This document shows, piece by piece, positions 30,001 to 57,563 of a stretch of 64,000 bases of DNA. Source of the DNA: Candidatus Endomicrobium embiratermitis (lineage in GTDB: Bacteria > Elusimicrobiota > Endomicrobiia > Endomicrobiales > Endomicrobiaceae); assembly GCA_009781315.1 (NCBI GenBank), contig WQYI01000001.1:124001-188000 (forward strand), in the 5' to 3' direction. Numbering within the stretch: the first letter of the stretch is position 1; each line of letters starts with the position of its first letter. The notes beneath the pieces were generated by a model that was not told the origin of the DNA, searched no databases, and saw only the letters and a list, made by a program, of their open reading frames with translations. The translations under genes were made by a program, and so were the position numbers.

Positions 30001-31789
<1,789 letters not shown>

Positions 31790-31817
31790 TGTAAAATAAT
31801 ATACAAAAATAAAAAAC

Positions 31818-31852
31818 AAACGCCTCCGAAAAATACTCGGAGGCGTTTTTTC
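31818..31852 (+). terminator. groEL terminator
   Basis: ACGCCTCCGA and TCGGAGGCGT form a 10-bp stem with an AAAATAC loop and a T-run. Confidence 0.9.
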
Positions 31853-31882
31853 GTCATTACGTTTTAAGAATGTCGTCTAATG

Positions 31883-31891
31883 TGCTATAAT
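31883..31891 (+). promoter_or_regulatory. Extended -10 promoter for the autotransporter gene
   Basis: TGCTATAAT, with TATAAT at 31886-31891. The leader would be about 100 bases and contain the repeat at 31911-31970. Confidence 0.55.
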
Positions 31892-31910
31892 TTTCTAAAA
31901 ACCTACATTT

Positions 31911-32001: not shown

Positions 32002-35000
32002 ATGAAAAAGTTTTTATTGTTTCCGTTATTAATGATAGTTTTATTTAGCATTAATGGGTTTTCTCAAACGATAAACGTTTCCAGTTATAGCTATCTTCAA
32101 CAACTGTTTAGGCAGGCGGGCGTTAGGAACGTGGTGCTTATAGACAATATAACCGGCACAGAGCGTCTCGGAAGCATGGCTTCTTCGGGTATTATGACAA
32201 TAAGCGGGAATTATAATCTTTCTGTTTCATTGTCAACAAGCAGCAATGGCGGGGCTTTTAGCGTTACTAATTCTACGTTAACTTTTAATACCGGCGGCAA
32301 TATAACATTTAGCAGCAATTCAGCAACAAATTACGGCGGAGCGATATATAATACCAGAGTGATAAATTTTGAAACAGCTGCGGGAAGAAGCGTGATATTT
32401 AGCAATAATACCGCAGATTACGGCGGAGCAATATATAATACCGGCGCTAGTGCAAACATAACATTTACAAACGGCAATATAATGTTTGCCGGAAATAGAG
32501 CGGATGTTACAAGCTACACGTACGGTGGCGGAGCGATATACAACCAGTCGGGCGGTCAAATAAATTTTGATATGTCTTCGGTCGGCAAGGTAACATTCAG
32601 CAGCAATACTGCGGCAAGCAGCGGCGGAGCGATATATAACAATGGCGATAATTCGCAAATAACATTTACAAATGGCGATATATTGTTTTTCGGAAATAAA
32701 GCGAACGGCGCAGGATCAATCACCGGCGGCGGCGCGATATGCAATTATTTGGGTCAAATAAATTTTGATATGTCTTCGAGCGGCAGGGTAACATTCAGCA
32801 GCAATACTGCAACTTCCGGCGGAGCGATATACCATTTCGGTTTAGCCGGTAATTCAAAAACAGTATTTGCAAACGGCGATATAATATTTATCGGAAACAG
32901 CGCAAATTACGGCGGAGCGATATATACTAACGGCAGTTCATCAATAAGTTTTGCAGGCAGCAATGTAAGATTCGGCGGCAATACTGCGGCAACTTCCGGC
33001 GGAGCGATATGTAATGAGGGCGGGCAAATGGATTTTGAGATGTTTTCCGTCGGTGCGATAACATTCAGCAGCAATACTGCAAGGTTTGGCGGAGCGATAT
33101 ACAATTCCAGAACAATAAGTTTTAGAGCAGCGTCCGGCAGCAATATAATATTCAGCAGCAATACTGCAACAAGTTCCGGCGGAGTGATATACAACTCAAG
33201 CGGTCAAATAAATTTTGAGATGTCTTCAGGAGGCAAGGTAACATTCAGCAGCAATACTGCGGCAAGTAACGGCGGAGTGATATACAATGACGGTTGGAGC
33301 GCTAATACAAAAATAACATTTACAAACGGCGATATACTATTTGACGGAAATAGGGCAAGTTCCGGCGGCGCGATACATAGTGAGTACAATTCAATAATAA
33401 ATTTTACCTCTTCAACAATAACCTTCACCGGTAATGTAGCCCAAAGCAGCGGCGGAGCGATATACAACTATGCAGGCGGTCAAATAAGTTTTGAAATGTC
33501 TTCAGGAGGTAAGTTAACATTTAGCAGTAATACGGCAAGATGGGGCGGAGCGATAAGTAATAATAGAGCTAATTCAACTATAACATTTACGAACGGCAAT
33601 ATAATGTTTATCGGAAACAGCGCAAGCAGTTTAGGCGGAGCGGTATATAATGAGGGGACGATAAATTTTGAAACAGTATCCGGCAGCAGCATAACATTCA
33701 TAGGCAATCGTGCCGGCGACGGCAGCGCAGGAAATGGTAACGACATATACAATAGCGGAACAATAAACATAACCGGCGGCGGAGCTGTAATAATAAGCAG
33801 CGGGATAGCGGGAAGCGGGACGATAAACAACGCGGCAAATGTATATTTGAACGGCAATAGTTCGGGATATACGGGAACGTATACGCAGACAGGCGGAACA
33901 ACCGCAATAAGCGCAAGCTTCTTTAACGGAACAAATAATATAACCGCAGGAACAATACAAATAAACGACGGAGCAGTGATAAACAGCGTATTGTCAATGG
34001 GAGCGTCTTCGCTGCTCAATATAAATGTTACGGGAACGATTGCATTGCAGCGCGACAAATTTATCGGGACAACATTCGCCGTAAGTAAAACAAACAGCGG
34101 AACATTAAACATATCCGAAGATTTCAGCGCGCATACGGGAGCATTTACGCAAACAGCGGGAAATACCAATGTAACAAATAAAACATTTAATTCGATGCAT
34201 ACGATAGACGGCGGAACATTAACATTTGCAACCGGGGCAGTGGTAGCTGCGAATACAAAAGTATCCGTAGGAACAAACGGAACATTGTCGCTCACCGGTA
34301 ATGACAATTTAAGTTTCGCAGCAAGTTTCTTAAGCGGAAACGGAACTGTAAACAAGAGCGGAACAGGGACATTAGATATAGCAGGCAATAATAGCGCATA
34401 CACGGGAACATATACGCAAACAAACGGAAATACAATAGTAACAAGCAATTATTTTAACGGGCAAAGCAATATCAACGGCGGAACGTTAACATTTGCTACG
34501 GGGACGGCAGTAGCCGCAAACACAAAAGTATCTGTAGGAATAAGCGGAACATTGTCGCTCACCGGTAATGACAATTTAAGTTTTGGAACAAGTTTCTTAA
34601 GCGGAAACGGAACTGTAAACAAGAGCGGCACGGGTACATTAAACATAACGGGCGATAACAGTTTGTTTACGGGAACATTTACGCAGACGGCGGGGCAGAC
34701 AATTGTATATGAGACTGGAAAAATGTTTAGCGGAACAAATGCAATAGCAACCAGCACGCTGACGGTATACGGAGCTGCAAGCGCTGCAAGCATGGGATAT
34801 AACGTAAATTTGGGAAACAACGCGATATCCGATTATTACAGTAAAAATACGGTGCCAACTATATTAAACGAGACAAACATTAATTTTACGGGAACGGGAG
34901 CAAAAGCGAACTTTCTTAATTCGGGAACAGGCGATTACGCATATTATGTGTTAAACAGTTCATATACCGGAGTGGTTGGGAACAGCGTAAACTTCAAGAA

Positions 35001-38000
35001 CTCTTTCGTAAGTTTTGCGCCTTCTAATTTTAGCGGGAACATAGAGTACAGTTTTGAGAATTCTGTAATAGACATAGCAAATACCGTAAGCAACAGCACG
35101 AGAACAATAACGTTTAACAGATTAAATTTGATAGGAGCCAACAACGGATTGAATTTCGGAATAAGATTTAGTTCTCATGCCGGAAACACTTACAGCATGG
35201 ATACGGACAAGATTGACTTAACGGGCGGCGGCAGCGGAGTAATAGGCAGCATTTTTGACATAAGGGTATATTACGGCGAAGAACTGGCAGATTTAAACGG
35301 AACATTTAATTCCCGGGTCTTGTACGGCGGTCTGATGTTTGCGACGAACATATCAAGCTTTACATTGGGAATGGGCGTGCATACGTATAAAATAGGAGTA
35401 AACAGCGATTGGCAAACCATAAACGTAACCATAGACGGCGGCGGCGGAGTAGTGTATACATTGTATGATTACAACGCCGGGACAGTCGGAACAAATAGAG
35501 CCTGGGTATGGAATAATAGCAGCGCATATTATATAGACAAAGAATTAGGAATTACGGCGCCGGGATTATTTAGCGTAAGCGGCAATGACGGCGTAGCGTC
35601 CAGACGCGTAATTTCCGGGAAAATAAACAACGGCAGCACGTACGGTTCGTTGTTTAAAATAACCGACGGAGTAAATGCGTCGACGTTTACTTTGGAAAAT
35701 ATAACGGTAACGCAGGCGCTTGCGGACGGTATGGGAGGAGACACCGGACACGGTTCGGTACTTTATATGGACAGCGCGGTGTCGGAAGCTTTGATAAAAA
35801 ATGTGATAATCGCCGAAAACAGTTCAGTCTATTTTGGCGGTGCGATATATCTCGGAGCCGGAAAATTGACTGTAGAAGACACGGTATTCTCAAGCAACAC
35901 GGCGGATAGTGGCGGCGCGGTATCTTTGGCGGACGGCAGCAGCGCGCTGTTTAAAGGAAATATAAGTTTTATAAATAATACGGCAAACGGCCTCGGCGGA
36001 GCAATATACGCGGAAGGCACAAACAGCGTTTTTAACGCTTCAACGGGAAGCATATCATTTACTTCAAACAAAAGTATGACGGGCGGGGCGATATATAATA
36101 TCATTTTTTCCGAGATGTCATTTTCCGCGGGACAAGATATATCGTTCAATCACAATAACGCGTCTGGGTGCGGCGGAGCAATAAATTCCGAATTTGATTC
36201 TTTCATGACATTTGCTTCCGGCGGAGATGTTTTGTTTAACAATAATAAGGCTCCCAGTTTCGGCGGAGCAATACACGCTGGGTATTATTCCGATATGAAA
36301 TTTTCTGCCGTCAGAGATATTGTGTTTGACAGCAATTCCTCGTTTTACGGCGGAGCCGTGTACAGTGACTGTTATTCGTATATGTTCTTTACCGCAAACA
36401 GAGATATTATATTCAATAATAACAAGTCGGATAATATCGGCGACAATAACATGCCGGATAATGTCGGCGGCACTTTCGGCGGAGCAGTATATGCTATGGA
36501 TAATTCTTCAATGACATTTACGGCAGGTCGGAATATTACTTTCAGCAATAACAAGGCGTTGGAAGAAGGAACAGGCGGGGCTATTTTTACTTATGCATCC
36601 AGTACGTCTTTTATCGCGACTAATAATATTTCTTTTACGGGCAATCAAAGCGCTGCCGAAGGCGGGGCATTATACGTTTGGAATTCGATAATGAATTTTA
36701 ATGCTTCATCAATAACATTCAACACAAACGTCGCGGTGTCTTCCGGCGGAGCGATATACAATAAAGGAAGCGTGCTGGCGTTTAACGGAAATGTTTTATT
36801 CAGCAGCAACACGGCAAGTTCAGGCGGCGCGATATATAATGACGGCGGTACGATAAACTTTGTAACTACGGCGGGAAGCAGCGTAACATTTGCGGGAAAT
36901 ACGGCAAGCGGTCTCGGAAAAGACATATATAATGCCGGCGGAACAATAAACATAACCGGAGCCGGAGCAGTAATAATGGACGGCGGTATAGCCGGCTGGG
37001 GCTCAATAACAAAAGGTACAGGAGCAGGCAGGCTTAATTTGAGCGGGGATAATAGTTCATTTTACGGAACATTTACGCAGACAGTGGGACAGACAACCGT
37101 TTATGAAACAGGAAAAATGTTTGGCGGGACAAACGCAATATCAAACAGCACTGTGACGGTATATGGAGCCGCAAGCGCGGCAAGCATGGGGTATAACCTG
37201 GATCTCGGGAACAACGCGGTATCTGATTATTACAGCAAAAGTACCGGAACAACTACATTAGACAGAACAAACATAAATTTTACGGGAACCGGAGCAAATG
37301 CGAATTTCCGTAATTCGGGAACAGGCGATTATGCGTATTACGTGCTAAACAGTTCGTTTACGGGCTCTACGGGAAACAGCGTAAATTTCAAAAACTCTTT
37401 TGTAAGTTTTGCGGCGAATAGTTTTGTCGGCAATATTGGTTATAGTTTTGAGAATTCGGTAATAGACATAACAAACACAGTAGGAAGCAGCACGAGAACA
37501 ATAACTTTTGACAAGTTAAGTTTAATAGGAAGCAGCAATGCTTTGAATTTCGGTATAAGATTCAGTTCACACGCAGGAAACACTTACAGCATGGATACGG
37601 ACAAGATTAACTTAACGACCGGCAGCGGAGTGATAGGCAGCATATTTGACATAAGAGTATATTACGGCGAAGAGTTGGCAGATTTAAACGGAACATTTAA
37701 TTCCCAGGTCTTGTACAACGGTCTGACATTTGCGACGAGTATATCAAGTTTTACATTGGGAATGGGCGTACATTCGTATAAGGTAAGCGTGGATACTAAC
37801 AATTGGCAAAATATTAATGTAACCATAGAAGGCGGCTCGGGAATACTTACATTGTATGATTACAATGCTATGGTCGGACCGAGAGCGTGGGTATGGAATG
37901 AAGCGGGCACATATTATATTGACAGAGAATTGGGAGATACGGGAGCAGGACTGTTCAGCGTAAGCGGAAATGACAGCGTTGCGTCAAAATGGGTAGTTTC

Positions 38001-40116
38001 CGGAAAGATAAATAACGGTAGCACGTACGGTTCAATGTTTAAGTTAGTAAACGCGTCAACGTTTACCCTTAAAGACATAACGATAACGCAAGCGCGCGCG
38101 GACGGCACGGGAGATACAGGAAACGGTTCAGTACTTTATATGAGCAACGCGCTGTCGGAATCTTTGATAAGAAACGTAGTGCTGAATGTTAACACTTCCG
38201 TCGGGAACGGAGGAGCGGTGTATTTTGGAGCCGGAAAATTGACGATAGAAAACACAACGTTCAGCGGCAACACGGCAACCTTAAACGGCGGAGCACTATA
38301 TTTGGCGTCCGGAAGAAGCGCTGAGTTTAACGGCAATATGATTTTTGCAAATAATTCCGCGGGACAAAGAGGCGGCGCTGTTTTCTTAAGCAGTAATACG
38401 ATAGTAAATTTTAATACCGGCGGTTCCAACATAAATATAACTTTTAATAACAATACGGATACGAACGGTCTTAACGACATATATTTCTCAAATTCTTCAA
38501 CAATCAACTTTAATGCGTCAAATTACTCAATAATATTGGAAAACGGGCTGATAGCCGAAGGAAACGGAATAATAAATAAAACAGGTAACGGAAATTTGAT
38601 TTTTGGCGGCAATACGGTAATGAATATAGCGCAGTTTAACATAAGCGGCGGGAATATAGTATTTTTAGACAGCGCGACGTTTAAAGGGACAAGCATGATA
38701 TTGTCTGCGGGCAGCGCGCTGGATTTGCAGAACGGAACGGTAAATACTATAACAGTAGATACATTTTCAAGCACGACAAACACCAAAATAGACATATTTG
38801 CCAATAATAACGAGTGTGATAAAATAATAGCGGGGAACGCGACCGTAGGCGGAAATTTAGACATAAAAACGTATGTAGGCACATATGACAACCAAACATA
38901 TGAAATACTATTGTCAACGCTGACAAACGTGCAGGGATTGTTTACAAGCACAAGCACCAATAACGGTTTGCTTAAATTTACATTTAATGATTATGCGAAT
39001 TCCGACAGGATAATATTGACGATTAACGGAACGTTCGCGTCAAATCTGTCAAATTTGGAAGGTTTAAGTTTTAATCAAAAGGAAACAGCCAGAGTGTTAG
39101 ATAAATTATCTACGGACTCAAGTATAAGCAGCGCGCTTGCGGGAGTAATAACGGAAATAACATCGAAAAACGAAGCGGAACAGATGGCAGCGCTGTCGGA
39201 TGTAGCAGGGCATTTTATAAGCAATATAGTAAGAAATTTTGCCATAGCCAGCCCCAATACCGAAATATATGACAAAATAAACAATGCCGACGATAACGGA
39301 ATATGGACGCAAGTCAGAGGCGGACAAGAAACGTTTAAAGAGAACGAGAATTCTTTGGAAGATTATATAGACAATTCTCTTGGAGCTTTGTTAGGATATG
39401 ACTGCGTAAAAAATTTAACAGACAGTAATTTAGTATACGGAGTGTTTGCAAGATTTGTGAAAGACAGCGCAGAACAGGGCGAGAGTAAATCCGACGGTAC
39501 AAAAATAGGAGGAGGGTTATACGCGGGATATGTAAATAAAAATTGGGAAATTAAAACAATGGTATTGGGAAGCATGGATAATTTCAATTCTGAAAGATAC
39601 ATACCGACGTTTGACAAAACGGCCAAAGCCGAAATAGAAGCAATAACAATAAGCGCGGATATAGAAGGAGCGTTATATTATGAATTAACAAATAACGTAA
39701 GTATCAAACCGTATGTCGGAATGGAAGCCGGGAACGTAAATTATAAAGATTTTAAAGAGACCGGAGCGCCGGGACTAAATTTAGAAGTAAAAGGCGACAG
39801 CTATATAAGAAGCGCGGCGCGTTTTGGATTGGGAATAGAATGCGGGCAAGACAAATGGAACGTATATTTAAAAGGCGAAGGGAAATATCTGATAATGGGA
39901 TATGAGCCTGAAATTCTGGGAGTATTTGAGGATACGGGGGAAAGTTTTACAAGCAGAGGTGCAAAAGAAGAAGGAATACAGATAGGAGTATTACTCGGAG
40001 GAGATGTTTTTATAACCTCAAATATAAAAATGTTTATCAATGCGAATTATTATACCGGAGAGAACTACATTAATATGAGCGCTAATGCCGGATTTAGATT
40101 TTTATTGGGGATTTAA
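32002..40116 (+). CDS. Giant autotransporter adhesin with Chlamydia-Pmp-like repeats
   Basis: 2704 residues. Signal peptide 1-22 (ending INGFSQ). The passenger is a long beta-helix with about 30 GGA[I/V/L] motifs, many paired with F(S/T)(S/G)N(T)A, like chlamydial Pmp proteins: 15 in a first block (residues about 100-560), 12 in a second (about 1280-1620) and 3 near 2080-2130. Between the blocks are autotransporter-associated strand repeats (SGTGTLDIAGNNSAYTGTYTQT), including a tandem 89-residue repeat at about 34210-34743. A duplicated module of about 375 residues lies at 34690-35820 and 37083-38195. The C-terminal 270 residues (IWTQVRGGQETF to GFRFLLGI) form the outer-membrane barrel. It is a type V secreted surface protein, probably an adhesin. 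The ribosome-binding site is AGGAAAG. Confidence 0.93.
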   Translation: MKKFLLFPLLMIVLFSINGFSQTINVSSYSYLQQLFRQAGVRNVVLIDNITGTERLGSMASSGIMTISGNYNLSVSLSTSSNGGAFSVTNSTLTFNTGGNITFSSNSATNYGGAIYNTRVINFETAAGRSVIFSNNTADYGGAIYNTGASANITFTNGNIMFAGNRADVTSYTYGGGAIYNQSGGQINFDMSSVGKVTFSSNTAASSGGAIYNNGDNSQITFTNGDILFFGNKANGAGSITGGGAICNYLGQINFDMSSSGRVTFSSNTATSGGAIYHFGLAGNSKTVFANGDIIFIGNSANYGGAIYTNGSSSISFAGSNVRFGGNTAATSGGAICNEGGQMDFEMFSVGAITFSSNTARFGGAIYNSRTISFRAASGSNIIFSSNTATSSGGVIYNSSGQINFEMSSGGKVTFSSNTAASNGGVIYNDGWSANTKITFTNGDILFDGNRASSGGAIHSEYNSIINFTSSTITFTGNVAQSSGGAIYNYAGGQISFEMSSGGKLTFSSNTARWGGAISNNRANSTITFTNGNIMFIGNSASSLGGAVYNEGTINFETVSGSSITFIGNRAGDGSAGNGNDIYNSGTINITGGGAVIISSGIAGSGTINNAANVYLNGNSSGYTGTYTQTGGTTAISASFFNGTNNITAGTIQINDGAVINSVLSMGASSLLNINVTGTIALQRDKFIGTTFAVSKTNSGTLNISEDFSAHTGAFTQTAGNTNVTNKTFNSMHTIDGGTLTFATGAVVAANTKVSVGTNGTLSLTGNDNLSFAASFLSGNGTVNKSGTGTLDIAGNNSAYTGTYTQTNGNTIVTSNYFNGQSNINGGTLTFATGTAVAANTKVSVGISGTLSLTGNDNLSFGTSFLSGNGTVNKSGTGTLNITGDNSLFTGTFTQTAGQTIVYETGKMFSGTNAIATSTLTVYGAASAASMGYNVNLGNNAISDYYSKNTVPTILNETNINFTGTGAKANFLNSGTGDYAYYVLNSSYTGVVGNSVNFKNSFVSFAPSNFSGNIEYSFENSVIDIANTVSNSTRTITFNRLNLIGANNGLNFGIRFSSHAGNTYSMDTDKIDLTGGGSGVIGSIFDIRVYYGEELADLNGTFNSRVLYGGLMFATNISSFTLGMGVHTYKIGVNSDWQTINVTIDGGGGVVYTLYDYNAGTVGTNRAWVWNNSSAYYIDKELGITAPGLFSVSGNDGVASRRVISGKINNGSTYGSLFKITDGVNASTFTLENITVTQALADGMGGDTGHGSVLYMDSAVSEALIKNVIIAENSSVYFGGAIYLGAGKLTVEDTVFSSNTADSGGAVSLADGSSALFKGNISFINNTANGLGGAIYAEGTNSVFNASTGSISFTSNKSMTGGAIYNIIFSEMSFSAGQDISFNHNNASGCGGAINSEFDSFMTFASGGDVLFNNNKAPSFGGAIHAGYYSDMKFSAVRDIVFDSNSSFYGGAVYSDCYSYMFFTANRDIIFNNNKSDNIGDNNMPDNVGGTFGGAVYAMDNSSMTFTAGRNITFSNNKALEEGTGGAIFTYASSTSFIATNNISFTGNQSAAEGGALYVWNSIMNFNASSITFNTNVAVSSGGAIYNKGSVLAFNGNVLFSSNTASSGGAIYNDGGTINFVTTAGSSVTFAGNTASGLGKDIYNAGGTINITGAGAVIMDGGIAGWGSITKGTGAGRLNLSGDNSSFYGTFTQTVGQTTVYETGKMFGGTNAISNSTVTVYGAASAASMGYNLDLGNNAVSDYYSKSTGTTTLDRTNINFTGTGANANFRNSGTGDYAYYVLNSSFTGSTGNSVNFKNSFVSFAANSFVGNIGYSFENSVIDITNTVGSSTRTITFDKLSLIGSSNALNFGIRFSSHAGNTYSMDTDKINLTTGSGVIGSIFDIRVYYGEELADLNGTFNSQVLYNGLTFATSISSFTLGMGVHSYKVSVDTNNWQNINVTIEGGSGILTLYDYNAMVGPRAWVWNEAGTYYIDRELGDTGAGLFSVSGNDSVASKWVVSGKINNGSTYGSMFKLVNASTFTLKDITITQARADGTGDTGNGSVLYMSNALSESLIRNVVLNVNTSVGNGGAVYFGAGKLTIENTTFSGNTATLNGGALYLASGRSAEFNGNMIFANNSAGQRGGAVFLSSNTIVNFNTGGSNINITFNNNTDTNGLNDIYFSNSSTINFNASNYSIILENGLIAEGNGIINKTGNGNLIFGGNTVMNIAQFNISGGNIVFLDSATFKGTSMILSAGSALDLQNGTVNTITVDTFSSTTNTKIDIFANNNECDKIIAGNATVGGNLDIKTYVGTYDNQTYEILLSTLTNVQGLFTSTSTNNGLLKFTFNDYANSDRIILTINGTFASNLSNLEGLSFNQKETARVLDKLSTDSSISSALAGVITEITSKNEAEQMAALSDVAGHFISNIVRNFAIASPNTEIYDKINNADDNGIWTQVRGGQETFKENENSLEDYIDNSLGALLGYDCVKNLTDSNLVYGVFARFVKDSAEQGESKSDGTKIGGGLYAGYVNKNWEIKTMVLGSMDNFNSERYIPTFDKTAKAEIEAITISADIEGALYYELTNNVSIKPYVGMEAGNVNYKDFKETGAPGLNLEVKGDSYIRSAARFGLGIECGQDKWNVYLKGEGKYLIMGYEPEILGVFEDTGESFTSRGAKEEGIQIGVLLGGDVFITSNIKMFINANYYTGENYINMSANAGFRFLLGI
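34690..35820 (+). repeat. Autotransporter internal duplication, copy 1
   Basis: Begins near TVYETGKMF-type sequence (here IVYETGKMFSGTNAI) and runs through SMGYNVNLGNNAISDYYSK to GSVLYMDSAVSEALIKNV. Copy 2 is offset by about 2.39 kb. Confidence 0.85.
37083..38195 (+). repeat. Autotransporter internal duplication, copy 2
   Basis: TVYETGKMFGGTNAIS, SMGYNLDLGNNAVSDYYSK and GSVLYMSNALSESLIRNV align with copy 1 with few gaps. Amino-acid identity is high but DNA has many synonymous changes, so the duplication is not recent. Confidence 0.85.
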
Positions 40117-40135
40117 ACGCGGAAAAAAAACGGCT

Positions 40136-40185
40136 ATGCCTATGGGCGGCGGAATGCCTCCTATGCCGGAATATTAATAACGGCA
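40136..40185 (+). repeat. 50-bp direct repeat, copy 2 (orphan groEL 3' end)
   Basis: Exact copy of 31740-31789, encoding [13 protein letters not shown] and stop with no reading frame in front of it. It lies 20 bases after the autotransporter stop. Confidence 0.9.
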
Positions 40186-40203
40186 CAGTAATATATAAAA
40201 TAA

Positions 40204-40241
40204 AAAACGACTCCGAAAAATACTCGGAGTCGTTTTTTATT
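40204..40241 (+). terminator. Autotransporter terminator (paralogue of the groEL terminator)
   Basis: ACGACTCCGA/TCGGAGTCGT with the same AAAATAC loop as at 31818. It differs from the groEL stem by compensating changes on both arms. A T-run follows. Confidence 0.9.
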
Positions 40242-40260
40242 TTAAGATGTTATCTAATTT

Positions 40261-40269
40261 GGTATAATT
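40261..40269 (+). promoter_or_regulatory. Extended -10 promoter for tex
   Basis: TGGTATAAT, corresponding to TGCTATAAT at 31883-31891 in the first copy of the duplicated region. Confidence 0.55.
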
Positions 40270-40300: not shown

Positions 40301-42457
40301 ATGAGCGCGGAAAAGAGAATTATAGATTGGATTACTTCGGATTTAAATTTGCCGGAAAGCGGCGTAAGAAATACCGTAGTAATGTTAAGCGATGGCGATA
40401 CAGTGCCTTTTATATCGCGTTACAGGAAAGAAAAGACCGGAAATTTAACGGAAATCAATGTCCGCGATATATCCGACAAACTTCAATATTACATAGAACT
40501 TGAAACCAGAAAAGAAACTATTATCAACAGCATTGACGAACAGAAAAAGCTGACTTCCGAACTAAAAAAACAAATAGAAGAGTGTAAAGAAAAAACTAAA
40601 CTTGAAGATATTTATCTTCCGTATAAACCCAAACGCCAGACAAAAGCCACGATAGCGAAAGCCGCGGGGCTTGAACCTCTTGCCATAGAAATTACGGAAC
40701 AAAAAATCTCTATGAAAGAAAACAGGGAAGAAATCCTGAAAAAGTATCTTAATCCCGAAAAAGGAATAGACACTATTGAAAAAGCCGTTATGGGAGCAAT
40801 AGATATTGTCGCCGAACAAATATCCGACAACGCGGCGATAAGAGGTTTTGTGAGGACGTTTATATTAACTACCGGAAGCATTCGCTCAAAAGCCACGAAA
40901 GCCGCTGAAAATTTAAAAACAAAATACGATATGTATTACGATTACAGCGAACCTTTAAAAACCGTTCCCGGACACAGGCTGCTTGCCGTAAGGCGCGGAA
41001 CAAATGAAAAGGTTTTAACATGGAAAATAGTGATTGAAGACGAGCAGGCTGTGGAGCTGATACTTTCCAAAGTGGCAAAAAACAATAAATCGCTTTTTTA
41101 TCCCGAACTTTTTAATTCCGTCCAAACGGCTTATGACAGGCATTTGTATCCGTCTTTGCAGGTTGAAATATTTTTATCTAAAATGGACGATGCCGATAAA
41201 GACGCCATAAATGTTTTCGCGTCTAACGCGAAAAATCTTCTTCTGGCGTCTCCTGCCGGGCATAAAGTTATTATGGGGATAGATCCGGGTTTCAGGACAG
41301 GCTGCAAAGTGGCAGTTGTTGACGTTAACGGCAACTTTAAAGAGTATCATGCTATTTTTCCTCATGAACCGGTATCAAAAGTTAAAGAAGCTGAAGATAT
41401 TTTGATAGATTTAATTGAGGAGTATTATGTCGAACTTATTGCCATAGGAAACGGAACAGCGTCAAAAGAAACTACGGCTTTTGTGCATAACGCTTTGAAA
41501 AAGACAAAACATACGCCTAAAGTTGTTATTGTAAGCGAAGCAGGGGCTTCCGTATATTCCGCTTCTCCTCTTGCGTCTGCCGAGTTTCCGGATTTGGACG
41601 TAACCGTAAGAGGCGCGATAAGCATTGCCAGAAGGCTTCAAGACCCTTTGGCGGAACTTGTAAAAATAGACCCGAAATCCATAGGAGTAGGGCAATACCA
41701 GCATGACGTAAATCAGATTCAGCTTAAAAAGCAGTTGGACGGGACCGTGGAATCTGCCGTTAATTTTGTCGGAGTAAACTTAAACTCGGCTTCCACGGAA
41801 CTATTGTCATATGTTTCCGGAATAGGCAAAACAGCCGCGAAAAACATTATCCAGTACAGAACAAAAAACGGTTCGTTTAAAGATAAAAAAGATTTACTGA
41901 AAATTACGGGGCTGGGGGATAAAACTTTCACGCAATGCGCGGGATTTTTAAGGATTTCAGGAGGAATAAACCCGCTTGACAATTCGGCGGTTCACCCGGA
42001 AAGTTATGCGGTAGTTGAGAAAATGGCGCAAGATTTGGGCGTGGACGTTTCAGGTCTTGTCGGAAATGACAATCTCATAAAAAACATCAATCCGAAAAGT
42101 TATATTACCGAAGAAACCGGAATACTGACTTTAAACGATATTATCGCGGAGCTCAAAAAGCCGGGAGTTGACCCCAGAAAAGATTTTTCAACTGCGGAAT
42201 TCAGCTCGGATATCAATACTTTGGAAGATCTGCAGGAGAATATGATTTTGTCTGGAACAGTGACAAACGTCACGAATTTCGGCGCTTTTGTGGATATAGG
42301 AGTACATCAGGATGGACTTGTGCATATTTCAAAACTGAGTTCTAAATTTGTTACAAATCCGCACGAAGTCGTTTCAGTAGGGGAAACATTAAAGGTTAAA
42401 GTGCTGAAAGTCGATACCGAGCTTAAAAGGATAAGTCTGGAAGTGATAGGTAAGTAA
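40301..42457 (+). CDS. tex: Tex-type transcription accessory protein
   Basis: Nucleic-acid-binding protein related to eukaryotic Spt6, involved in transcription and RNA turnover. In order: N-terminal helical Tex domain (SGVRNTVVMLSDGDTVPFISRYRKE), YqgF/RNase H-like domain (IMGIDPGFRTGCKVAVVD, about 325-450) and helix-hairpin-helix (YVSGIGKTAAKNIIQYR, GLGDKTFTQCAGFLRI). The C-terminal S1 domain (ILSGTVTNVTNFGAFVDIGVHQDGLVHISKLS, about 645-716) closes it. 718 residues is slightly short but complete. GAGG precedes the ATG. Confidence 0.96.
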   Translation: MSAEKRIIDWITSDLNLPESGVRNTVVMLSDGDTVPFISRYRKEKTGNLTEINVRDISDKLQYYIELETRKETIINSIDEQKKLTSELKKQIEECKEKTKLEDIYLPYKPKRQTKATIAKAAGLEPLAIEITEQKISMKENREEILKKYLNPEKGIDTIEKAVMGAIDIVAEQISDNAAIRGFVRTFILTTGSIRSKATKAAENLKTKYDMYYDYSEPLKTVPGHRLLAVRRGTNEKVLTWKIVIEDEQAVELILSKVAKNNKSLFYPELFNSVQTAYDRHLYPSLQVEIFLSKMDDADKDAINVFASNAKNLLLASPAGHKVIMGIDPGFRTGCKVAVVDVNGNFKEYHAIFPHEPVSKVKEAEDILIDLIEEYYVELIAIGNGTASKETTAFVHNALKKTKHTPKVVIVSEAGASVYSASPLASAEFPDLDVTVRGAISIARRLQDPLAELVKIDPKSIGVGQYQHDVNQIQLKKQLDGTVESAVNFVGVNLNSASTELLSYVSGIGKTAAKNIIQYRTKNGSFKDKKDLLKITGLGDKTFTQCAGFLRISGGINPLDNSAVHPESYAVVEKMAQDLGVDVSGLVGNDNLIKNINPKSYITEETGILTLNDIIAELKKPGVDPRKDFSTAEFSSDINTLEDLQENMILSGTVTNVTNFGAFVDIGVHQDGLVHISKLSSKFVTNPHEVVSVGETLKVKVLKVDTELKRISLEVIGK

Positions 42458-42535: not shown

Positions 42536-43681
42536 TTAGAAAGCAAATTTAAATTCTATGCCTGTTGAATTGTTAACATATTCAAATACTTCAATGTTAG
42601 ATGTTCTTGTGGAATATTCATAAAATACGGCAATTTTGCCATTTTCAAAAATTTCCATTTCAACAGCCGGGCGCACTCTAAGAAACTCGTCATTTCTCAA
42701 AACATCGGAGCCGGCTATTTCTATAGGGTATGCCATATCCTCATAGCTGCCTAAAACAGAAGCGCTATATTTGTCATATATCTTTTGTGAAGCATACAAG
42801 GACACTGACGTTGAAATATAGTATCTGTTTAAATCATAAAGAGTTTCCTGGGCCGCTCTGTTGCCGGATAAAGTAAGCGAGGTGCTGTAAGTAGGGTCCC
42901 ATTTCACGGAAACCAAGTAACCCACTAAGCTGGTTTCATTTTCGGCAACATTGCCAAGAGAATCCACTTTATCATTAGCATAATCTCTCATATCATAGCT
43001 TACTTTTGCAAGAGCCGTTATGCGTTCAGACAAATCGCCTTTTATGCCAAGTCCGATACTGTCGCCGGAAGAGTTGTTAGCTTCATTTTTAGAATAATCG
43101 ATTATCGAGTGAGTGTAATTCACGAATAGTCTTGTTTTAGGCATAACCGTGTAAAATAAATCTACAAGCGCATCAATTCTGTTTCTGGATAAATAATCAA
43201 ATTCTTCTTTAATATAGCTGTCATAAGTGTTCTTGCCGCCGATGCCTATGGCAAAGTCTTTATCTCTTGAAGAAATAAAATACAAATCCGTAGTATTGTT
43301 TATACGCTCCGCTCTTTCCGTAAGGGCTGAATTTGCCGGATCTGAAGTGAATAAGAAAGTATTGGAAACATTAAAATAATCATGTTCTCCGGATACATAC
43401 ACCAAAGCGTCAAAATAACTATTGACCGACGGGTCTGTCATATAGTAATTATAACCGCCTAAAATTCCTGCTTTTAAACTTATGTTTGTTGAAGGTATTA
43501 AAGACTCATAATTAAGCCCTAATTTTGTAGTTGATATCATAGACGATTCTGTATCTTCGTTTGTAAAGTATATATTATCGTCGTAAGAAACCCGTTCCGT
43601 AAAAACAAAACTCAAATCACCGGCAAACGATACTGTTACGCTTAAAGCCACTGCTAAAACCGACAATAAAATTTTTTTCAT
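42536..43681 (-). CDS. Outer-membrane beta-barrel porin of the exopolysaccharide locus (BBP2-like)
   Basis: Signal peptide MKKILLSVLAVALSVTVSFA, then about 360 residues of regularly spaced amphipathic strands ending in an aromatic (GIEFKFAF), as in barrels assembled by BAM. The start GDLSFVFTERVSYDDNIYF resembles the putative beta-barrel porin 2 family common in exopolysaccharide clusters. It is the last gene of the locus. With a short OPX protein lacking an obvious outer-membrane helix, it could be the export pore. That role is inference; the barrel prediction is fairly sure. Confidence 0.8.
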   Translation of the reverse strand: MKKILLSVLAVALSVTVSFAGDLSFVFTERVSYDDNIYFTNEDTESSMISTTKLGLNYESLIPSTNISLKAGILGGYNYYMTDPSVNSYFDALVYVSGEHDYFNVSNTFLFTSDPANSALTERAERINNTTDLYFISSRDKDFAIGIGGKNTYDSYIKEEFDYLSRNRIDALVDLFYTVMPKTRLFVNYTHSIIDYSKNEANNSSGDSIGLGIKGDLSERITALAKVSYDMRDYANDKVDSLGNVAENETSLVGYLVSVKWDPTYSTSLTLSGNRAAQETLYDLNRYYISTSVSLYASQKIYDKYSASVLGSYEDMAYPIEIAGSDVLRNDEFLRVRPAVEMEIFENGKIAVFYEYSTRTSNIEVFEYVNNSTGIEFKFAF

Positions 43682-45439: not shown

Positions 45440-46777
45440 TTAGCCCATCTTCTTGTCGCTGATAAAAAGCCTTCGGATAGTTTTTAGTATTATTGATATA
45501 TCAAGAAAAAATGATTTGTTTTTTATGTAGTAAATGTCATAAGCAAAACGTATAACGCAGTCTTCTATATTTCTTACAGCCCTAAAATTAAGCTGTGCCC
45601 AGCCTGCTATTCCGGGGCGAACTATATTCCTTAAACTGTAATTAGATATTTGTTTTTCGGCAGTTTCATATTCTTTATCCCAGACGGGTCTGGGGCCTAC
45701 TAAAGACAAATCGCCTTTTATCAAATTAATTAATTGCGGTATTTCATCCAGCCTAAATCTTCTTAAAATTTTTCCGGTTACGCCGTATTCGCTCTGTTCT
45801 TTGTTATATTCATTAAAAACTTCTTTTGCCGCCGTATCGTTCTTTTTTTGTTTCATCGTCCTGAATTTGTAAATATAAAAAGTCTTGCCCAAGTATCCTA
45901 TCCTTTTTTGTTTAAATACCGGGTTATATCCGTCAACAATTTTTATAACAAGCCATATAAACAAAAACGGTATAAAAAATAATAAAACCGCTAAAAGAGA
46001 AACTAAAATATCTATTGAGCGTTTAAGTATTTTATAGACGCCGTATTCATCGCGTTCTGCTATAGTTTTTATAAGCCATAAACTCTCTTTTACGCTTTCA
46101 TCAGGTATTCTTCCGAATAATTCTTCGTAAAAGTCGAAATCTGTTTTTATGGTTATTCCCTTATTTACAAAATTTTTAGCTAAAGGTTTCCAAAAAGCAG
46201 TGTCACGGTTAAAAAGATATCCGTTTTGTATAACTATAAAATCAATATTTTTTTTTGTATAGTTTTCTATATTTCCTTTTTGTTCATCTAAGGATGCATA
46301 TTCAAAAATGACTTTATATTCTTTATTGTTTAAAAGATTTTGTTTTATCTCGTTTATTGTGGAGCTAACGCCTATAATGACTATTTTTTTTACAAGCAGT
46401 CCGCGTTTATCTTTAAAACTTAAAAACTGTTTTCTGGTAAAATAAGCCGCAAGATAAAATATTGATAAGGAACTAAACAACGTAGTTTTAGGAGTGCCTA
46501 AGTTCATAATACCGGAGAATAAATAAAAAAATCCCATTCCAAAAAGAATGTTTATAAAAAACAGGGCGAGAAAAGTTTTTTTTAAACCGTGTTTTCTTAA
46601 AAAATTTAAGTCATAAATTGAAAAAATATAAGAGGTTAAAACTATAGGTATAAATAAAGGGATGTAATCTGTCCAATAAAAAAAATGATCAATATTAAGC
46701 TGCCTTAAAAAAAGCGCTAAAAATATTGAGCCTAAAAACAAAACAGCATCAATGATAAGTAAAAGAAATTTTGACAT
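45440..46777 (-). CDS. Initiating polyprenyl-phosphate phosphosugar transferase
   Basis: Attaches the first sugar phosphate to undecaprenyl phosphate in the inner membrane. Four N-terminal helices (from LLLIIDAVLFLGSIFLALFL), a CoA-binding-like middle domain, then the catalytic bacterial sugar-transferase domain from about residue 255. There KRSIDILVSLLAVL is the membrane re-entrant helix, followed by VFKQKRIGYLGKTFYIYKFRTM, RFRLDEIPQLINLIKGDLSLVGPRP and RPGIAGWAQLN. 445 residues is typical of WbaP/WcaJ-class enzymes. Confidence 0.95.
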   Translation of the reverse strand: MSKFLLLIIDAVLFLGSIFLALFLRQLNIDHFFYWTDYIPLFIPIVLTSYIFSIYDLNFLRKHGLKKTFLALFFINILFGMGFFYLFSGIMNLGTPKTTLFSSLSIFYLAAYFTRKQFLSFKDKRGLLVKKIVIIGVSSTINEIKQNLLNNKEYKVIFEYASLDEQKGNIENYTKKNIDFIVIQNGYLFNRDTAFWKPLAKNFVNKGITIKTDFDFYEELFGRIPDESVKESLWLIKTIAERDEYGVYKILKRSIDILVSLLAVLLFFIPFLFIWLVIKIVDGYNPVFKQKRIGYLGKTFYIYKFRTMKQKKNDTAAKEVFNEYNKEQSEYGVTGKILRRFRLDEIPQLINLIKGDLSLVGPRPVWDKEYETAEKQISNYSLRNIVRPGIAGWAQLNFRAVRNIEDCVIRFAYDIYYIKNKSFFLDISIILKTIRRLFISDKKMG

Positions 46778-46837
46778 CGTTGTCTGAATTTATAGCAATT
46801 ACTGTATTTTAATGCAAATTTAAAACCTAATATTTTT

Positions 46838-46954
46838 TTAATATTTTACAAACGCTAAGCATATGGGTTTTCTAACACGATTAAATGGGATAATTAGCTT
46901 AAGTAGTAATTCTTTCTGAATTTTTTTGAGTGGAATTTTATTTTTCAGTTTCAC
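46838..46954 (-). pseudogene. Possible short coding remnant after the acyltransferase gene
   Basis: A 38-codon frame (GTG start at 46954) overlaps the acyltransferase end in another frame. It reads [18 protein letters not shown] then IPFNRVRKPICLAFVKY. The basic, amphipathic character and lack of stops resemble a glycosyltransferase C-terminus. It could be a truncated gene or chance. Confidence 0.25.
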
Positions 46955-47567
46955 TGTGATATCTTTCTACAAAAGCCTTTGGGCTTGGCATATACTCTAC
47001 TGACTCCAATATCTTTTTTAAACTCCAGTCCCACCATTTAATTTTATTTAATTTTTCAATTATATCTTCTGAAAAGCGGTACTTTATAACCTTGGCCGGA
47101 ACTCCGCCTGCAATAGCAAAATCAGGAATATCTTTAACCACAACAGCACCCGCTGCAATAATGGCGCCATTGCCTATTTTAACTCCGGATAATATTGTTG
47201 CATTTGCGCCAATCCAAACATCATTGCCTATTTCAATATCTCCTTTATATTTTATAGTGGATAGATGTTGCAAATTTTTCATTTCATGACGAGGTATAAA
47301 TGGATATGTGGACACCCATTCAACATCATGTTCACCACCGCAAATTATATGTGTGTTTTTTGCTATTGAGCAAAATTTACCTATAGTCAGCTTTATTCTT
47401 GGGTCCCAACATTGTATAAACGTACCGTTGGAATGAGAACATTGTCCAACATTTATTATGGGGTAGGCACTTCCGCTAAAAGTTAAGTGCATCCCGGTAA
47501 TTTTTGGAGGCTTAGCTTTTTTGGGGCAAAGAAGTTTGTTTTTTAATTTTTTAAATATTTCTTCCAT
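46938..47567 (-). CDS. Left-handed beta-helix (hexapeptide) O-acyltransferase
   Basis: CatB/Xat-like trimeric acyltransferase. Hexapeptide repeats run from about residue 60 ([23 protein letters not shown]) to 175 ([37 protein letters not shown], then [11 protein letters not shown]). The catalytic His is likely in GGEHDVEW. In this locus it most likely acetylates a sugar of the repeat unit. A GGAG 6 bases before ATG 47567 favours that start over an upstream ATG at 47582. A 160-base gap separates it from the sugar transferase gene. Confidence 0.9.
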
Positions 47568-47641
47568 TACACACTCCTGCATGGTAAATAGATATTGGTT
47601 TTTAAATATGTGTTGTGATATTTTACTTTTAAATTAAAAAA

Positions 47642-48748
47642 TTATTTAACCTGCGCCAACCTTTCTTTAAGCAGCGCTATATATTTCTCCCAAGCGTTTT
47701 GCTTATGCTTCTTAAGAAGTTCATTTTCGTCAATGATGTCGGCTGTTGTCTTATCTATAAGATTAAAAATGTCTTGTACAGAAGTATTTTTGTTTATAAT
47801 TTTCGCCTTAAAGCCGTTAAGCGTATCTGCCCTAAGGTCATGCGCCAAAGCTATTCCCGGTATGGCTAAGGATGCACTCATTCCTATGCCGTGGATTCTA
47901 TGTCCTATAACCAAATCAAAACGGGAAAAGATTTCCCGGTAATCTTTGGCGTCGTACGAATAAGAAATATCCATTCCGGGGAAGTCCCGCGCAGCAGAGG
48001 GCATCTCGTCAATATAATGACAAACCAAACCTATTTCATATTCTTTAGAATATTGTTTTATAATCTGTTTGTAAAGCGAAATTAAAAAAGTGTAAGTTTC
48101 CCGCGAGATATTATTACAGGGCGATGCCTGGGGGCAACCGTAAATAAGGCCTATTTTTTTAACTTTTTTAATTTCTTTTTCCTTTCCTAGAGATACGCTA
48201 AAGAGCGCCGGACAAGGCATCTGAACAGCGTTTACAGCATTCAGGCTTTTTGCAAGATTAGTATCCCTGGTAATAATAAGTTTGGCGTTTTTAAGGGTTT
48301 GGATTTCAACTGCTTTTAGTTCAGACAGATTAAGATTCTGTTGGTCAGCACGCAGTCCTATGCCTAGATAAACGGCGGGTATATTGTATCTATTGATAAC
48401 ATCATACAATTTTGCGTTGCGGTAACCGTACCATTCCGGCGAACCGGCAAAAACGGCAAGGTCTAAAAAAGAAGCGTCGGTATTATCCTTAAAGGAATTA
48501 TCAAAAAACCCCATTCTTAAAAAAGCATCCGACAAGCCTTTACTTTTACATGAAACGCGCTCCCAAAAAGTATTTCTAAAAAAATTTAAGTTTGAATATT
48601 TTTCCTGCCGTATGGCGGGATTCCTGTTATATATTACCGGATTAAAACCCGGGTATAATTCTTTAAGCAGATTTATGCAGCCGAGAAGTATAAACTCATC
48701 CCCCGGGTTCCACTGCCTAGTGGTGGAAAAAAGTATATTCTTTCTCAT
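47642..48748 (-). CDS. Polysaccharide pyruvyltransferase family protein
   Basis: Members of this family transfer pyruvate from phosphoenolpyruvate onto sugars of exopolysaccharides as ketals, giving acidic polymers. Seen are the N-terminal ILFSTTRQWNPGDEFILLGC (G-D-x-x motif), YLGIGLRADQQN, ITRDTNLAKSLN and the C-terminal LVIGHRIHGIGMSASLAIPGIAL, where H-R-x-H-G is the family signature. 368 residues. Start overlaps the flippase stop by 4 bases. Confidence 0.9.
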   Translation of the reverse strand: MRKNILFSTTRQWNPGDEFILLGCINLLKELYPGFNPVIYNRNPAIRQEKYSNLNFFRNTFWERVSCKSKGLSDAFLRMGFFDNSFKDNTDASFLDLAVFAGSPEWYGYRNAKLYDVINRYNIPAVYLGIGLRADQQNLNLSELKAVEIQTLKNAKLIITRDTNLAKSLNAVNAVQMPCPALFSVSLGKEKEIKKVKKIGLIYGCPQASPCNNISRETYTFLISLYKQIIKQYSKEYEIGLVCHYIDEMPSAARDFPGMDISYSYDAKDYREIFSRFDLVIGHRIHGIGMSASLAIPGIALAHDLRADTLNGFKAKIINKNTSVQDIFNLIDKTTADIIDENELLKKHKQNAWEKYIALLKERLAQVK

Positions 48749-50280
48749 ATCGCAAAGCCTCTCTTTAAAAAAGATTTTATTTTATCGGTAATTAATTGCC
48801 TCTCAGAACCGTTTAACGCTACAAAGTATGATGATAATGCTGCGCACATTGTACTAAAAAACAATATGCATATAAATCTTATCCAACCCTGTTCAAGGTA
48901 ATGCATCAAAGCGAGCGACGGCAAAACAGAAAGCAGCAAAACAATGGCGCCTTTTAAAACAATATCCTTCAAAAACGCGGTAACTCTGAAGTCTTTTATA
49001 TATTTGCCGGCAAATGCACATAATACTGCAAAAAGCAGCAATGTCGCACTTAAGTTAACTATGAAAGGTATGGCAGGCGCGGCGCCCGCTTTGAGCATAA
49101 GCCAGGAAATCGGTATTATCAAAAAATAAACCGTGCCAAGCAAAAGGCTTACCGCAAACAATTTACCGGTAGCCTGTATGGCAAGAAATAAAGTTCTGTA
49201 CGTTACTGAAATCAAATTGGCGGCTAGCAGCATTTTACAAAACAGGGCTGTATAAGGCGGCGCTTCTTTAAGCCAGAGAGTTAAAATAAAATCTATCTCT
49301 AAAAATAACGGGATAGTAATCATAAGCACTAGTATAAAGGCTATTTTTGCGCCGTTGTTGATTAGAAGGAGCATCTCCTTATAATCGCCGCGGGCGTAAT
49401 TTTTTACTATCTGCGGTCTGCTCGCCAAAAGGAAGTTGTCAGAAAGCCCTGCCACAGCAAAAAACACTTGGTTGGCTATACCTGTTGCCGCGCTTAAAAC
49501 CGGTCCGAAAAACATATTTTGAAGTACGTTAATACCCTGCGATTTGAAAACAGACATGCTTTCCGAATATAAGGTATTTGACGAAAAACCCAGTAAAGGT
49601 TTTAAAAATACGGTGTTAAATGCTGGTTTGGCACGGGCTTCAACATTGTGCCGCAATGTGTAAATGACATATAAAATCATTGTGGCAAAAGATATGACAA
49701 ACAGTACCAAACCGTACAATATGATCAAATTATAATCTTTAAACAAAAACAGCGCCGCTACTAAAATAAATTTTAAAACAACATTAAATATCGAAAAGTA
49801 TGAAAATATATTCATCTTTTCATGTGCTATTATAAGCGCTTCGTAAGGTATCCTAAGAATAGAAAACAGCGTCGCAAACACGGTTGCCTGATAAAGAATA
49901 TTCGCGGCAAAAAGGCTTTGCGCGGGGATAAGCAGTTTATTGTTGATAAACCAAAGTCCCGCAGTTTGGGCAAGTAATAAAAAGATAGCTGCAGCTGCTA
50001 AATGCACCGTCAGCACCGCTGAAAATACGGACTTAAGTTTGTCGGGATTGCCAAGACCGATTTCATAAGTAAGAAAGCGCGATGCCGCTCCGCTCAAAGA
50101 GCCGTTAAGAAAAGTTATAATGACAACGGCGCTTGTTATAACGCTGACAATACCGAAATTTTCCATACCCAATAAAGCCAACAGCATACGGGAGATATAT
50201 AAATTTATAAAAATTATTACCAGCGTGCGTACGTAAAGCATTATTGTGTTTACGGCAATTCTTTTATGTGTTGTTTTCAT
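48745..50280 (-). CDS. Wzx-type lipid-linked oligosaccharide flippase
   Basis: 511 residues with 12-14 membrane helices (IMLYVRTLVIIFINLYISRML at the start; MENFGIVSVITSAVVIITFLNGSLSGAASR). This is the layout of the polysaccharide-specific MOP/MATE exporters that flip undecaprenyl-linked repeat units to the periplasm. With EpsG-type and O-antigen-ligase-type proteins it defines a Wzx/Wzy-dependent pathway. Confidence 0.9.
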   Translation of the reverse strand: MKTTHKRIAVNTIMLYVRTLVIIFINLYISRMLLALLGMENFGIVSVITSAVVIITFLNGSLSGAASRFLTYEIGLGNPDKLKSVFSAVLTVHLAAAAIFLLLAQTAGLWFINNKLLIPAQSLFAANILYQATVFATLFSILRIPYEALIIAHEKMNIFSYFSIFNVVLKFILVAALFLFKDYNLIILYGLVLFVISFATMILYVIYTLRHNVEARAKPAFNTVFLKPLLGFSSNTLYSESMSVFKSQGINVLQNMFFGPVLSAATGIANQVFFAVAGLSDNFLLASRPQIVKNYARGDYKEMLLLINNGAKIAFILVLMITIPLFLEIDFILTLWLKEAPPYTALFCKMLLAANLISVTYRTLFLAIQATGKLFAVSLLLGTVYFLIIPISWLMLKAGAAPAIPFIVNLSATLLLFAVLCAFAGKYIKDFRVTAFLKDIVLKGAIVLLLSVLPSLALMHYLEQGWIRFICILFFSTMCAALSSYFVALNGSERQLITDKIKSFLKRGFAI

Positions 50281-50296
50281 TTTTATTTTACGTTAT

Positions 50297-51349: not shown

Positions 51350-51355
51350 TTTTTG

Positions 51356-52477: not shown

Positions 52478-52485
52478 TATAAACC

Positions 52486-53508: not shown

Positions 53509-53509
53509 C

Positions 53510-54343: not shown

Positions 54344-54355
54344 ACTTATGTTATG

Positions 54356-54376
54356 GATTTCCGCGGCAATGACGAC
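54356..54376 (-). repeat. Truncated GTCATTGCCGCGG repeat
   Basis: On the minus strand GTCATTGCCGCGGAAATCC, half of the GTCAT-type palindromic element. It is the only clear trace of these repeats in the exopolysaccharide locus. Confidence 0.6.
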
Positions 54377-54407
54377 AAAGGCAATTCTTATAGTTCAAGG
54401 CGACAGA

Positions 54408-56150: not shown

Positions 56151-56164
56151 TTAATATTTTTCCT

Positions 56165-56842: not shown

Positions 56843-56850
56843 AATATTTG

Positions 56851-57535: not shown

Positions 57536-57563
57536 AATATCCTCCATTTATTTATCTATCATT

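What the first reader, a model, noticed from the sequence alone, without database searches (positions are those of the whole stretch)
32002..40116. Chlamydia-Pmp-like GGA[I/V/L] / FxxN autotransporter outside Chlamydiae
About 30 GGA[I/V/L] motifs with paired F..N sequences match the pattern of chlamydial polymorphic membrane proteins, combined here with autotransporter strand repeats and a C-terminal barrel. A 2704-residue adhesin is a large investment for a small genome. It points to surface contact with a host or other cells and possible antigenic change through repeat recombination.
Basis: partly seen in the sequence, partly recalled or inferred. Interest (0 to 1): 0.55.

Follow-up and report, generated by a model that had tools for sequence, protein, structure and literature searches.

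The report
Giant Pmp-like surface adhesin in Endomicrobium
A gut bacterium of the termite-symbiont group Endomicrobium carries a very large self-exporting surface protein built from the same repeat as Chlamydia adhesins; the protein type is already known outside Chlamydia, but the size, turnover and wall-anchored relatives of this gene family are of interest.

Summary
Window 32002-40116 encodes a 2704-aa protein with 29 GGA[ILV] and 46 FxxN motifs, 25 paired (shuffle mean 0.07), Pfam Chlam_PMP E=1e-67 and a C-terminal PF03797 autotransporter barrel, seen only when that end is scanned alone. AlphaFold2 gives a confident all-beta repeat passenger (pLDDT 94) and a barrel matching EstA, EspP and NalP. 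The organism is inferred to be an Endomicrobium (Elusimicrobiota), with 12 autotransporter barrels in 1.9 Mb. It is not a Pmp in the strict sense: the Pmp middle region was not found. Pmp-repeat proteins outside Chlamydiae are in print, and E. coli K-12 YfaL has the same two profiles. Best reading: a type Va autotransporter adhesin of a fast-evolving family. Added here: the gene lies between groEL and tex beside a duplicated groEL 3' end and is missing there in a near relative; 40 of 75 complete related barrel ORFs carry an OmpA domain after the barrel; E. proavitum genes share 3' cassettes at 95-97% under different passengers. Function remains inferred.

The parts
32002..40116 (+). Pmp-like giant autotransporter gene, 2704 aa
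32002..32067 (+). probable Sec signal peptide (residues about 1-22)
   Evidence: read directly from the translation; inferred, no signal-peptide predictor was run
32308..33789 (+). Pmp repeat block 1 (residues about 103-596, 14 GGA[ILV])
   Evidence: AlphaFold2 of residues 60-400: pLDDT 94.4, all-beta
35836..36900 (+). Pmp repeat block 2 (residues about 1279-1633, 12 GGA[ILV])
38209..38454 (+). Pmp repeat block 3 (residues about 2070-2151, 3 GGA[ILV])
34651..35979 (+). internal duplication, copy 1 (module between repeat blocks)
   Evidence: 78% DNA identity over 1340 columns with copy 2 (also families D3, D5, D11, D12)
37045..38355 (+). internal duplication, copy 2
39001..39300 (+). helical linker before the barrel
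   Evidence: AlphaFold2 helices 24-36, 44-54, 58-68, 71-82 of the C-terminal piece
39301..40047 (+). PF03797 autotransporter beta-barrel (residues 2434-2682)
30153..31781 (+). upstream neighbour: groEL-like chaperonin (PF00118)
   Evidence: found in 13 of 15 genomes searched
40301..42457 (+). downstream neighbour: tex (Tex_YqgF, S1)
31727..31892 (+). direct repeat copy 1: groEL 3' end, terminator-like hairpin and following promoter-like stretch (ends approximate)
   Evidence: (80% over 166 columns)
40123..40268 (+). direct repeat copy 2 just after the adhesin stop codon: second copy of the groEL 3' end plus terminator-like hairpin (right end approximate)

Best explanation
The gene encodes a type Va (classical monomeric) autotransporter adhesin whose passenger is a very long Pmp-type beta-helix. 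After Sec export the C-terminal barrel is placed in the outer membrane, and the passenger is threaded out and folds from its C-terminal end into stacked rungs of about 30 residues in which FxxN and GGA[ILV] are packed, leaving variable loops on the outside to touch other cells or gut surfaces. It belongs to a rapidly changing multigene family of Endomicrobiaceae, diversified by internal duplication, reuse of 3' cassettes beneath different passengers, and gain or loss of whole genes. Shown: repeat profile, barrel profile, confident all-beta and barrel models, paralogues, internal duplication, locus polymorphism. Inferred: export route, folding order, surface position, adhesion and the partner (termite gut surface, gut flagellate or another bacterium).
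For: Motifs far above shuffles. PF02415 and TIGR01376. PF03797 and TIGR01414 on the C-terminus. Barrel model pLDDT 89.8, pTM 0.85; Foldseek best hits EstA 1.9e-17, EspP 2.9e-15, NalP 5.5e-15. Passenger segment pLDDT 94.4, pTM 0.93, strands only. 12 PF03797 barrels in the genome; 13 of the 14 other loci fetched have 6 or more GGA[ILV] in the open frame (some are likely halves split by contig ends). Relatives in 50 of 76 family genomes. Of 66 related complete barrel ORFs with at least 300 aa of passenger held, 60 have two or more GGA[ILV]. Pmps mediate adhesion in Chlamydia, and Pmp-motif proteins raise adhesion when expressed in trichomonads (abstracts and passages).
Against: No experiment. No Foldseek hit of the passenger reached E<=0.001 in solved structures, so the beta-helix is a prediction. 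Structure prediction covered residues 60-400 and 2334-2704 only. No profile hit in the modules between repeat blocks. Neighbours say nothing specific about host contact. Barrels are no more frequent in the reduced genus g8 than elsewhere, rather fewer, which does not point to host-cell invasion.
Confidence: 0.8

Rival explanations
1. A true chlamydial Pmp, inherited or transferred from Chlamydiae together with its middle region and barrel.
For: PF02415 E=1e-67 and the same order of N-terminal repeats and C-terminal barrel as in Pmps.
Against: PF07548 middle region not found at E<=1 in the whole protein or pieces, nor in any of 76 family genomes (no positive control available). The barrel scan of genome contigs returned only Endomicrobia (29 of 29 confirmed loci), although its patterns came from Endomicrobium paralogues and so favour them. 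Other modules split the repeat into blocks.
Confidence: 0.05
2. The passenger is not an adhesin but a glycan-active enzyme or a protective or structural coat of beta-helical rods.
For: Beta-helices are common in polysaccharide lyases and tailspikes; weak Foldseek matches include such enzymes beside adhesins (SRRP) and Rhombotarget A, none at E<=0.001.
Against: No enzyme family at a credible E-value in any piece. The invariant columns of the passenger alignment are F, N, G, A and I, as expected of the structural motifs rather than a catalytic site.
Confidence: 0.15
3. An active antigenic-variation or contingency system in which passengers are exchanged onto expressed 3' cassettes during growth.
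For: In the complete genome G002 (length of E. proavitum) several genes share 2.3-2.6 kb 3' ends at 95-97%, and some share their N-terminal region, while the middles differ; two 1152-aa ORFs are 100% identical over 3456 nt. Internal 1.3-kb duplication in the window gene and tandem repeats of about 260 nt at 88-94% in a paralogue. Direct repeats flank the window gene.
Against: In the window genome no other paralogue shares the gene at 85% DNA identity or more over 100 nt. No silent-cassette array, recombinase or phase-variable tract was looked for systematically or noticed. One assembly per species, so no switching could be observed. Of 21 genes with enough flank to compare, only the window gene had a long flanking repeat.
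Confidence: 0.12

Closest known systems
Chlamydial polymorphic membrane proteins (Pmp; PF02415 + PF07548 + PF03797)
   Same: GGA[ILV]/FxxN repeats at about 30-residue pitch, N-terminal passenger, C-terminal autotransporter barrel, multigene family
   Different: no Pmp middle region found; repeat region broken into three blocks by other modules; 2704 aa; host is a termite-gut Elusimicrobiota lineage
Escherichia coli YfaL and other PF02415-bearing type Va autotransporters
   Same: PF02415 repeats plus PF03797 barrel in one protein
   Different: YfaL has 2 PF02415 stretches, PATR and the AC_1 autochaperone; the window protein has 23 stretches and no AC_1 or PATR hit
Pmp-motif beta-helix proteins of Phycisphaerae, Methanobrevibacter and trichomonads (PMC10715098, PMC6701047; passages read)
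   Same: FxxN/GGA repeats outside Chlamydiae
   Different: trichomonad proteins have a transmembrane segment in place of an autotransporter barrel; the Methanobrevibacter one is described as an Ig-like repeat protein
OmpA-family peptidoglycan-binding proteins and LysM-bearing inverse autotransporters
   Same: many relatives of the window gene carry an OmpA (PF00691) domain after the barrel, so barrel plus wall anchor as in OmpA
   Different: the window gene itself ends at the barrel; in inverse autotransporters the periplasmic part is N-terminal (recalled)

Membership tests
Type Va classical autotransporter | C-terminal 12-stranded autotransporter barrel | tested here: met
   PF03797 109 bits, TIGR01414, model and Foldseek to EstA/EspP/NalP
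Type Va classical autotransporter | N-terminal Sec signal and long beta-helical passenger | tested here: inconclusive
   hydrophobic N-terminus read from sequence only; beta-rich passenger predicted for residues 60-400
Chlamydial Pmp family | repeated paired FxxN and GGA[ILV] | tested here: met
   25 pairs against shuffle mean 0.07; PF02415, TIGR01376
Chlamydial Pmp family | Pmp middle region (PF07548) between repeats and barrel | tested here: not met
   no hit at E<=1; 0 of 76 family genomes (no control genome rang, so the genome search alone is not proof)
Chlamydial Pmp family | barrel groups with chlamydial Pmp barrels in a tree | not testable with these tools
   no chlamydial genome was reached; tree of 77 family barrels only
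Chlamydial Pmp family | adhesion to host cells | not testable with these tools
   needs experiment
Autotransporter strand-repeat (PATR) proteins | PF12951 PATR or equivalent strand-repeat profile in the passenger | tested here: not met
   no hit at E<=1 in middle pieces; the YfaL control does hit PF12951
OmpA-anchored relatives of this family | PF00691 after the barrel | tested here: not met
   window protein ends 1 residue after the barrel model; 40 of 51 long tails of relatives have it

The most novel reading that the evidence does not exclude
Endomicrobiaceae possess a distinct type V adhesin system: giant Pmp-type beta-helices on a common barrel, in many members tethered to the cell wall by an OmpA domain (or a TPR or coiled-coil tail) placed after the barrel, with 3' cassettes recombined beneath changing passengers and whole genes gained or lost at sites such as groEL-tex. 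It would be a modular surface-diversification system of symbionts, with an internal rather than terminal barrel signal.
Probability: 0.3. Interest if true: 0.62.

Novelty: new member of a known kind. Interest (0 to 1): 0.42.

Why it matters
The protein type is known, so the window gene alone is a new, very large member. The family matters more: Endomicrobium includes a cultured species (E. proavitum) beside relatives that live inside gut flagellates, so a large Pmp-type repertoire in a non-chlamydial symbiont lineage gives a tractable, non-pathogenic place to test what FxxN/GGA beta-helices do. The OmpA tail after an autotransporter barrel raises a direct question for the BAM and type V field: how is a barrel recognised and closed when its last strand is not the C-terminus? 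Endomicrobiaceae are reported to lack BamBCD (PMC11257099, passages read).

Tried and rejected
Whole-protein hmmscan suggested no barrel; rejected after the C-terminal piece and the genome scan both hit PF03797. A chlamydial origin was considered and given low weight (no PF07548). A mobile 5' element was considered for the 147 bases before the ORF: only one copy in the genome. A general cassette rule (every paralogue flanked by a repeat) was tested and not found: of 24 genes tried (9 from the window genome, 15 open frames from G002) 3 had too little flank, and among the other 21 only the window gene had a long flanking repeat; one other had a 62-nt 82% match and one a 19-nt match. 'Adhesins lost in endosymbionts' was tested: genus g8 (taken to be Endomicrobiellum from genome sizes, inferred) has a median of 0 barrels per Mb in 41 genomes against 2.1 in 35 others (p=1.5e-4), but among genomes at least 80% complete 1.3 against 2.1 (28 against 30, p=0.013), with exceptions of 9, 9 and 21 barrels, and several larger-genome genera are also poor (0-4); no correction for kinship; so only a trend. 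Literature: 10 searches of the CC-licensed PMC library found no paper linking Elusimicrobia or Endomicrobia with Pmps or autotransporter adhesins, nor one that holds autotransporter, PF00691 and PF03797 together; most subscription papers are not held. Read: PMC4505116 whole text; PMC11257099 outline, passages and sections 6, 13, 15; PMC8809381, PMC10715098, PMC6701047 and PMC4827864 passages; the rest as search listings.

Full report
OBSERVATION. The ORF 32002..40116 (+) is one open frame of 2704 aa. It holds 29 GGA[ILV] and 46 FxxN; 25 GGA motifs follow an FxxN by 6-20 residues, most by 8 or 9. One thousand shuffles of the passenger gave means of 0.67, 17.5 and 0.07 and maxima of 4, 30 and 2. 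The motifs form three blocks with a pitch near 30 residues. Pfam PF02415 (E=1.2e-67, 23 stretches) and NCBIfam TIGR01376 (E=1.9e-58, 21 stretches) recognise them. The whole-protein scan did not list an autotransporter barrel; the C-terminal 371 aa alone give PF03797 at 4e-31 and TIGR01414 at 9e-13, and the genome scan places PF03797 at window 39301-40047.

STRUCTURE. An alignment of the window barrel with 29 relatives gave an AlphaFold2 model with pLDDT 89.8: a helical linker and then strands. Foldseek against solved structures ranks EstA, EspP and NalP first. Residues 60-400 with 16 relative segments gave pLDDT 94.4 and pTM 0.93 with strands only; no solved structure matched at E<=0.001, the best being Rhombotarget A at 0.054. 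This agrees with PMC10715098, which found only generic beta-helix relatives of the Pmp passenger in the PDB and described paired FxxN/GGA motifs as buried rung elements (passages). The gene also holds two copies of a 1.3-kb module at 78% DNA identity (34651-35979 and 37045-38355).

ORGANISM. The only genome-contig scan, with the barrel alignment of six paralogues, confirmed 29 of 243 pattern stretches; all 29 lie in records named Endomicrobium or Endomicrobia. One same-genus genome, G002, is a single contig of 1,588,979 bases, the length published for E. proavitum Rsa215 (PMC4505116, whole text); another, G003, has contig lengths equal to those of Ca. Endomicrobium labiotermitis records. So the window genome is inferred to be an Endomicrobium species. 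It measures 1.90 Mb in 25 contigs.

REPERTOIRE. The genome has 12 PF03797 barrels and 9 by the stricter family profile. Of the 14 other loci fetched, 13 have 6 or more GGA[ILV] in the open frame. Several frames run into contig ends (C1, C6, C9, C14, C15), so some are likely halves of one gene. The family profile hits 50 of 76 genomes of the bacterial family, with 0 to 26 barrels each (candidates capped), and none of the 16 genomes searched outside that family. PF02415 hits 55 of 198 genomes of the phylum. A tree of 77 barrels shows both subfamilies shared across genomes and lineage-specific groups (E. proavitum, E. labiotermitis); the window barrel pairs with the barrel at the start of contig C1 at 60% identity.

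CHANGE OVER TIME. In G002, pairs of genes share 2.3-2.6 kb 3' ends at 95-97% DNA identity although their ORFs run from 2197 to 7051 aa, and two 1152-aa ORFs are identical over 3456 nt. In the window genome no other paralogue reaches 85% with the window gene over 100 nt, so recent exchange is not seen there.

LOCUS. The gene sits between groEL and tex. In G001, a same-genus genome (Tex 94%, GroEL 95% identical), the two genes lie 1.36 kb apart on one contig, and the interval holds a different gene on the other strand, with an HxHxDH-like motif that resembles a metallo-hydrolase (motif recalled, no search) and no adhesin. In the other genomes where both genes were found they are on different contigs or far apart, so this locus order could be compared only between these two genomes. 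In the window the DNA just after the adhesin stop codon repeats the 3' end of groEL: 72 nt at 89%, with an identical run of about 50 nt that encodes the GroEL tail, then a second terminator-like hairpin; the alignment runs 166 columns at 80%. The adhesin thus lies between copies of the groEL 3' end. Insertion by recombination at groEL, or loss in the G001 line through such repeats, would both fit; the duplicated gene end favours insertion in the window line (inference). No other tested gene has a comparable repeat (1 of 21 with enough flank), so this is one event, not a rule.

TAILS AFTER THE BARREL. Among all loci held at that time (L001-L030 left out as duplicates; barrels not reaching the end of the model dropped), 88 ORFs had a barrel, 78 were distinct and 75 of these complete; 24 end within 60 aa of the barrel, as the window gene does, and 51 have longer tails. 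PF00691 OmpA is found in 40 of these 51 and TPR_2 in 4; some others are coiled coil by eye. In the window genome three paralogues have the OmpA tail and one a 443-aa Lys/Glu/Ala-rich tail. The sample is made of best matches and is not a census. By autotransporter topology the tail is on the periplasmic side (established knowledge), so it probably ties the adhesin to peptidoglycan (inference). No paper in the library holds autotransporter with PF00691 and PF03797, and a wider search listed one paper, on inverse autotransporters.

MEMBERSHIP. As a type Va autotransporter: met on the barrel, likely on the rest. As a Pmp: repeats met, middle region not found, barrel kinship not testable. It works like a Pmp-type surface beta-helix; it is not filed as a Pmp. 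E. coli K-12 YfaL with PF02415, PF03797, AC_1 and PATR shows that the pairing of repeat and barrel is ordinary among autotransporters.

CONTEXT. Downstream of tex, on the other strand, lies a polysaccharide cluster. Published work on Endomicrobiaceae describes free-living and flagellate-associated genera and reports that BamBCD and LptD are missing from all (PMC11257099, passages and sections 6, 13, 15); 'adhes', 'autotransport' and 'polymorphic' do not occur in its main text, nor in that of PMC8809381. Pmp-motif proteins also occur in trichomonads, which are parabasalids like many termite-gut flagellates (recalled), and a prokaryotic source has been proposed (PMC6701047, passages); whether Endomicrobia-like bacteria were a source is untested speculation.

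VERDICT. Observation confirmed, interpretation partly supported. The window gene is a new, large member of a known kind; the OmpA-tailed relatives and the locus polymorphism are the more interesting parts. Interest 0.42.

Noticed in passing
L033, L034, L035 (window genome) and 37 further ORFs among those: OmpA (PF00691) domain fused after an autotransporter barrel; 40 of 51 long tails, others TPR or coiled coil. Unusual placement for a type V protein.
   Followed up: partly
window 31727-31892 and 40123-40268: Second copy of the groEL 3' end and its terminator-like hairpin just after the adhesin gene, i.e. the adhesin lies between direct repeats.
   Followed up: yes
L125 (G001:C64) 2020-3135, minus strand: A different gene occupies the groEL-tex interval in the near relative; a motif suggests a metallo-hydrolase (recalled motif, no search).
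   Followed up: no
L107-L108 (G002:C1:792767-817255) and L111-L112 (G002:C1:327293-348445): Open frames of 8163 and 7051 aa in a 1.6-Mb genome, with the same type of 74-aa tail after the barrel.
   Followed up: partly
L105, L114, L119 (G002): Short C-terminal tail motif (DDLSDDLRNALR / NDLPDELQNALR / NDMPDDLQNALR), duplicated in L105: a possible periplasmic tag.
   Followed up: no
window 45440-59225, minus strand: Exopolysaccharide or O-antigen cluster: Bac_transf, hexapeptide transferase, pyruvyl transferase, two GT9, EpsG, Wzz-type, Wzy_C.
   Followed up: partly
window 42536-43681, minus strand: Putative BBP2-type outer-membrane porin next to tex.
   Followed up: no
G073, G083, G172 (family f1, genus g8): Small genomes of 1.0-1.3 Mb that keep 21, 9 and 9 barrels although the rest of their genus have 0-5: possible lineage-specific retention.
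   Followed up: no
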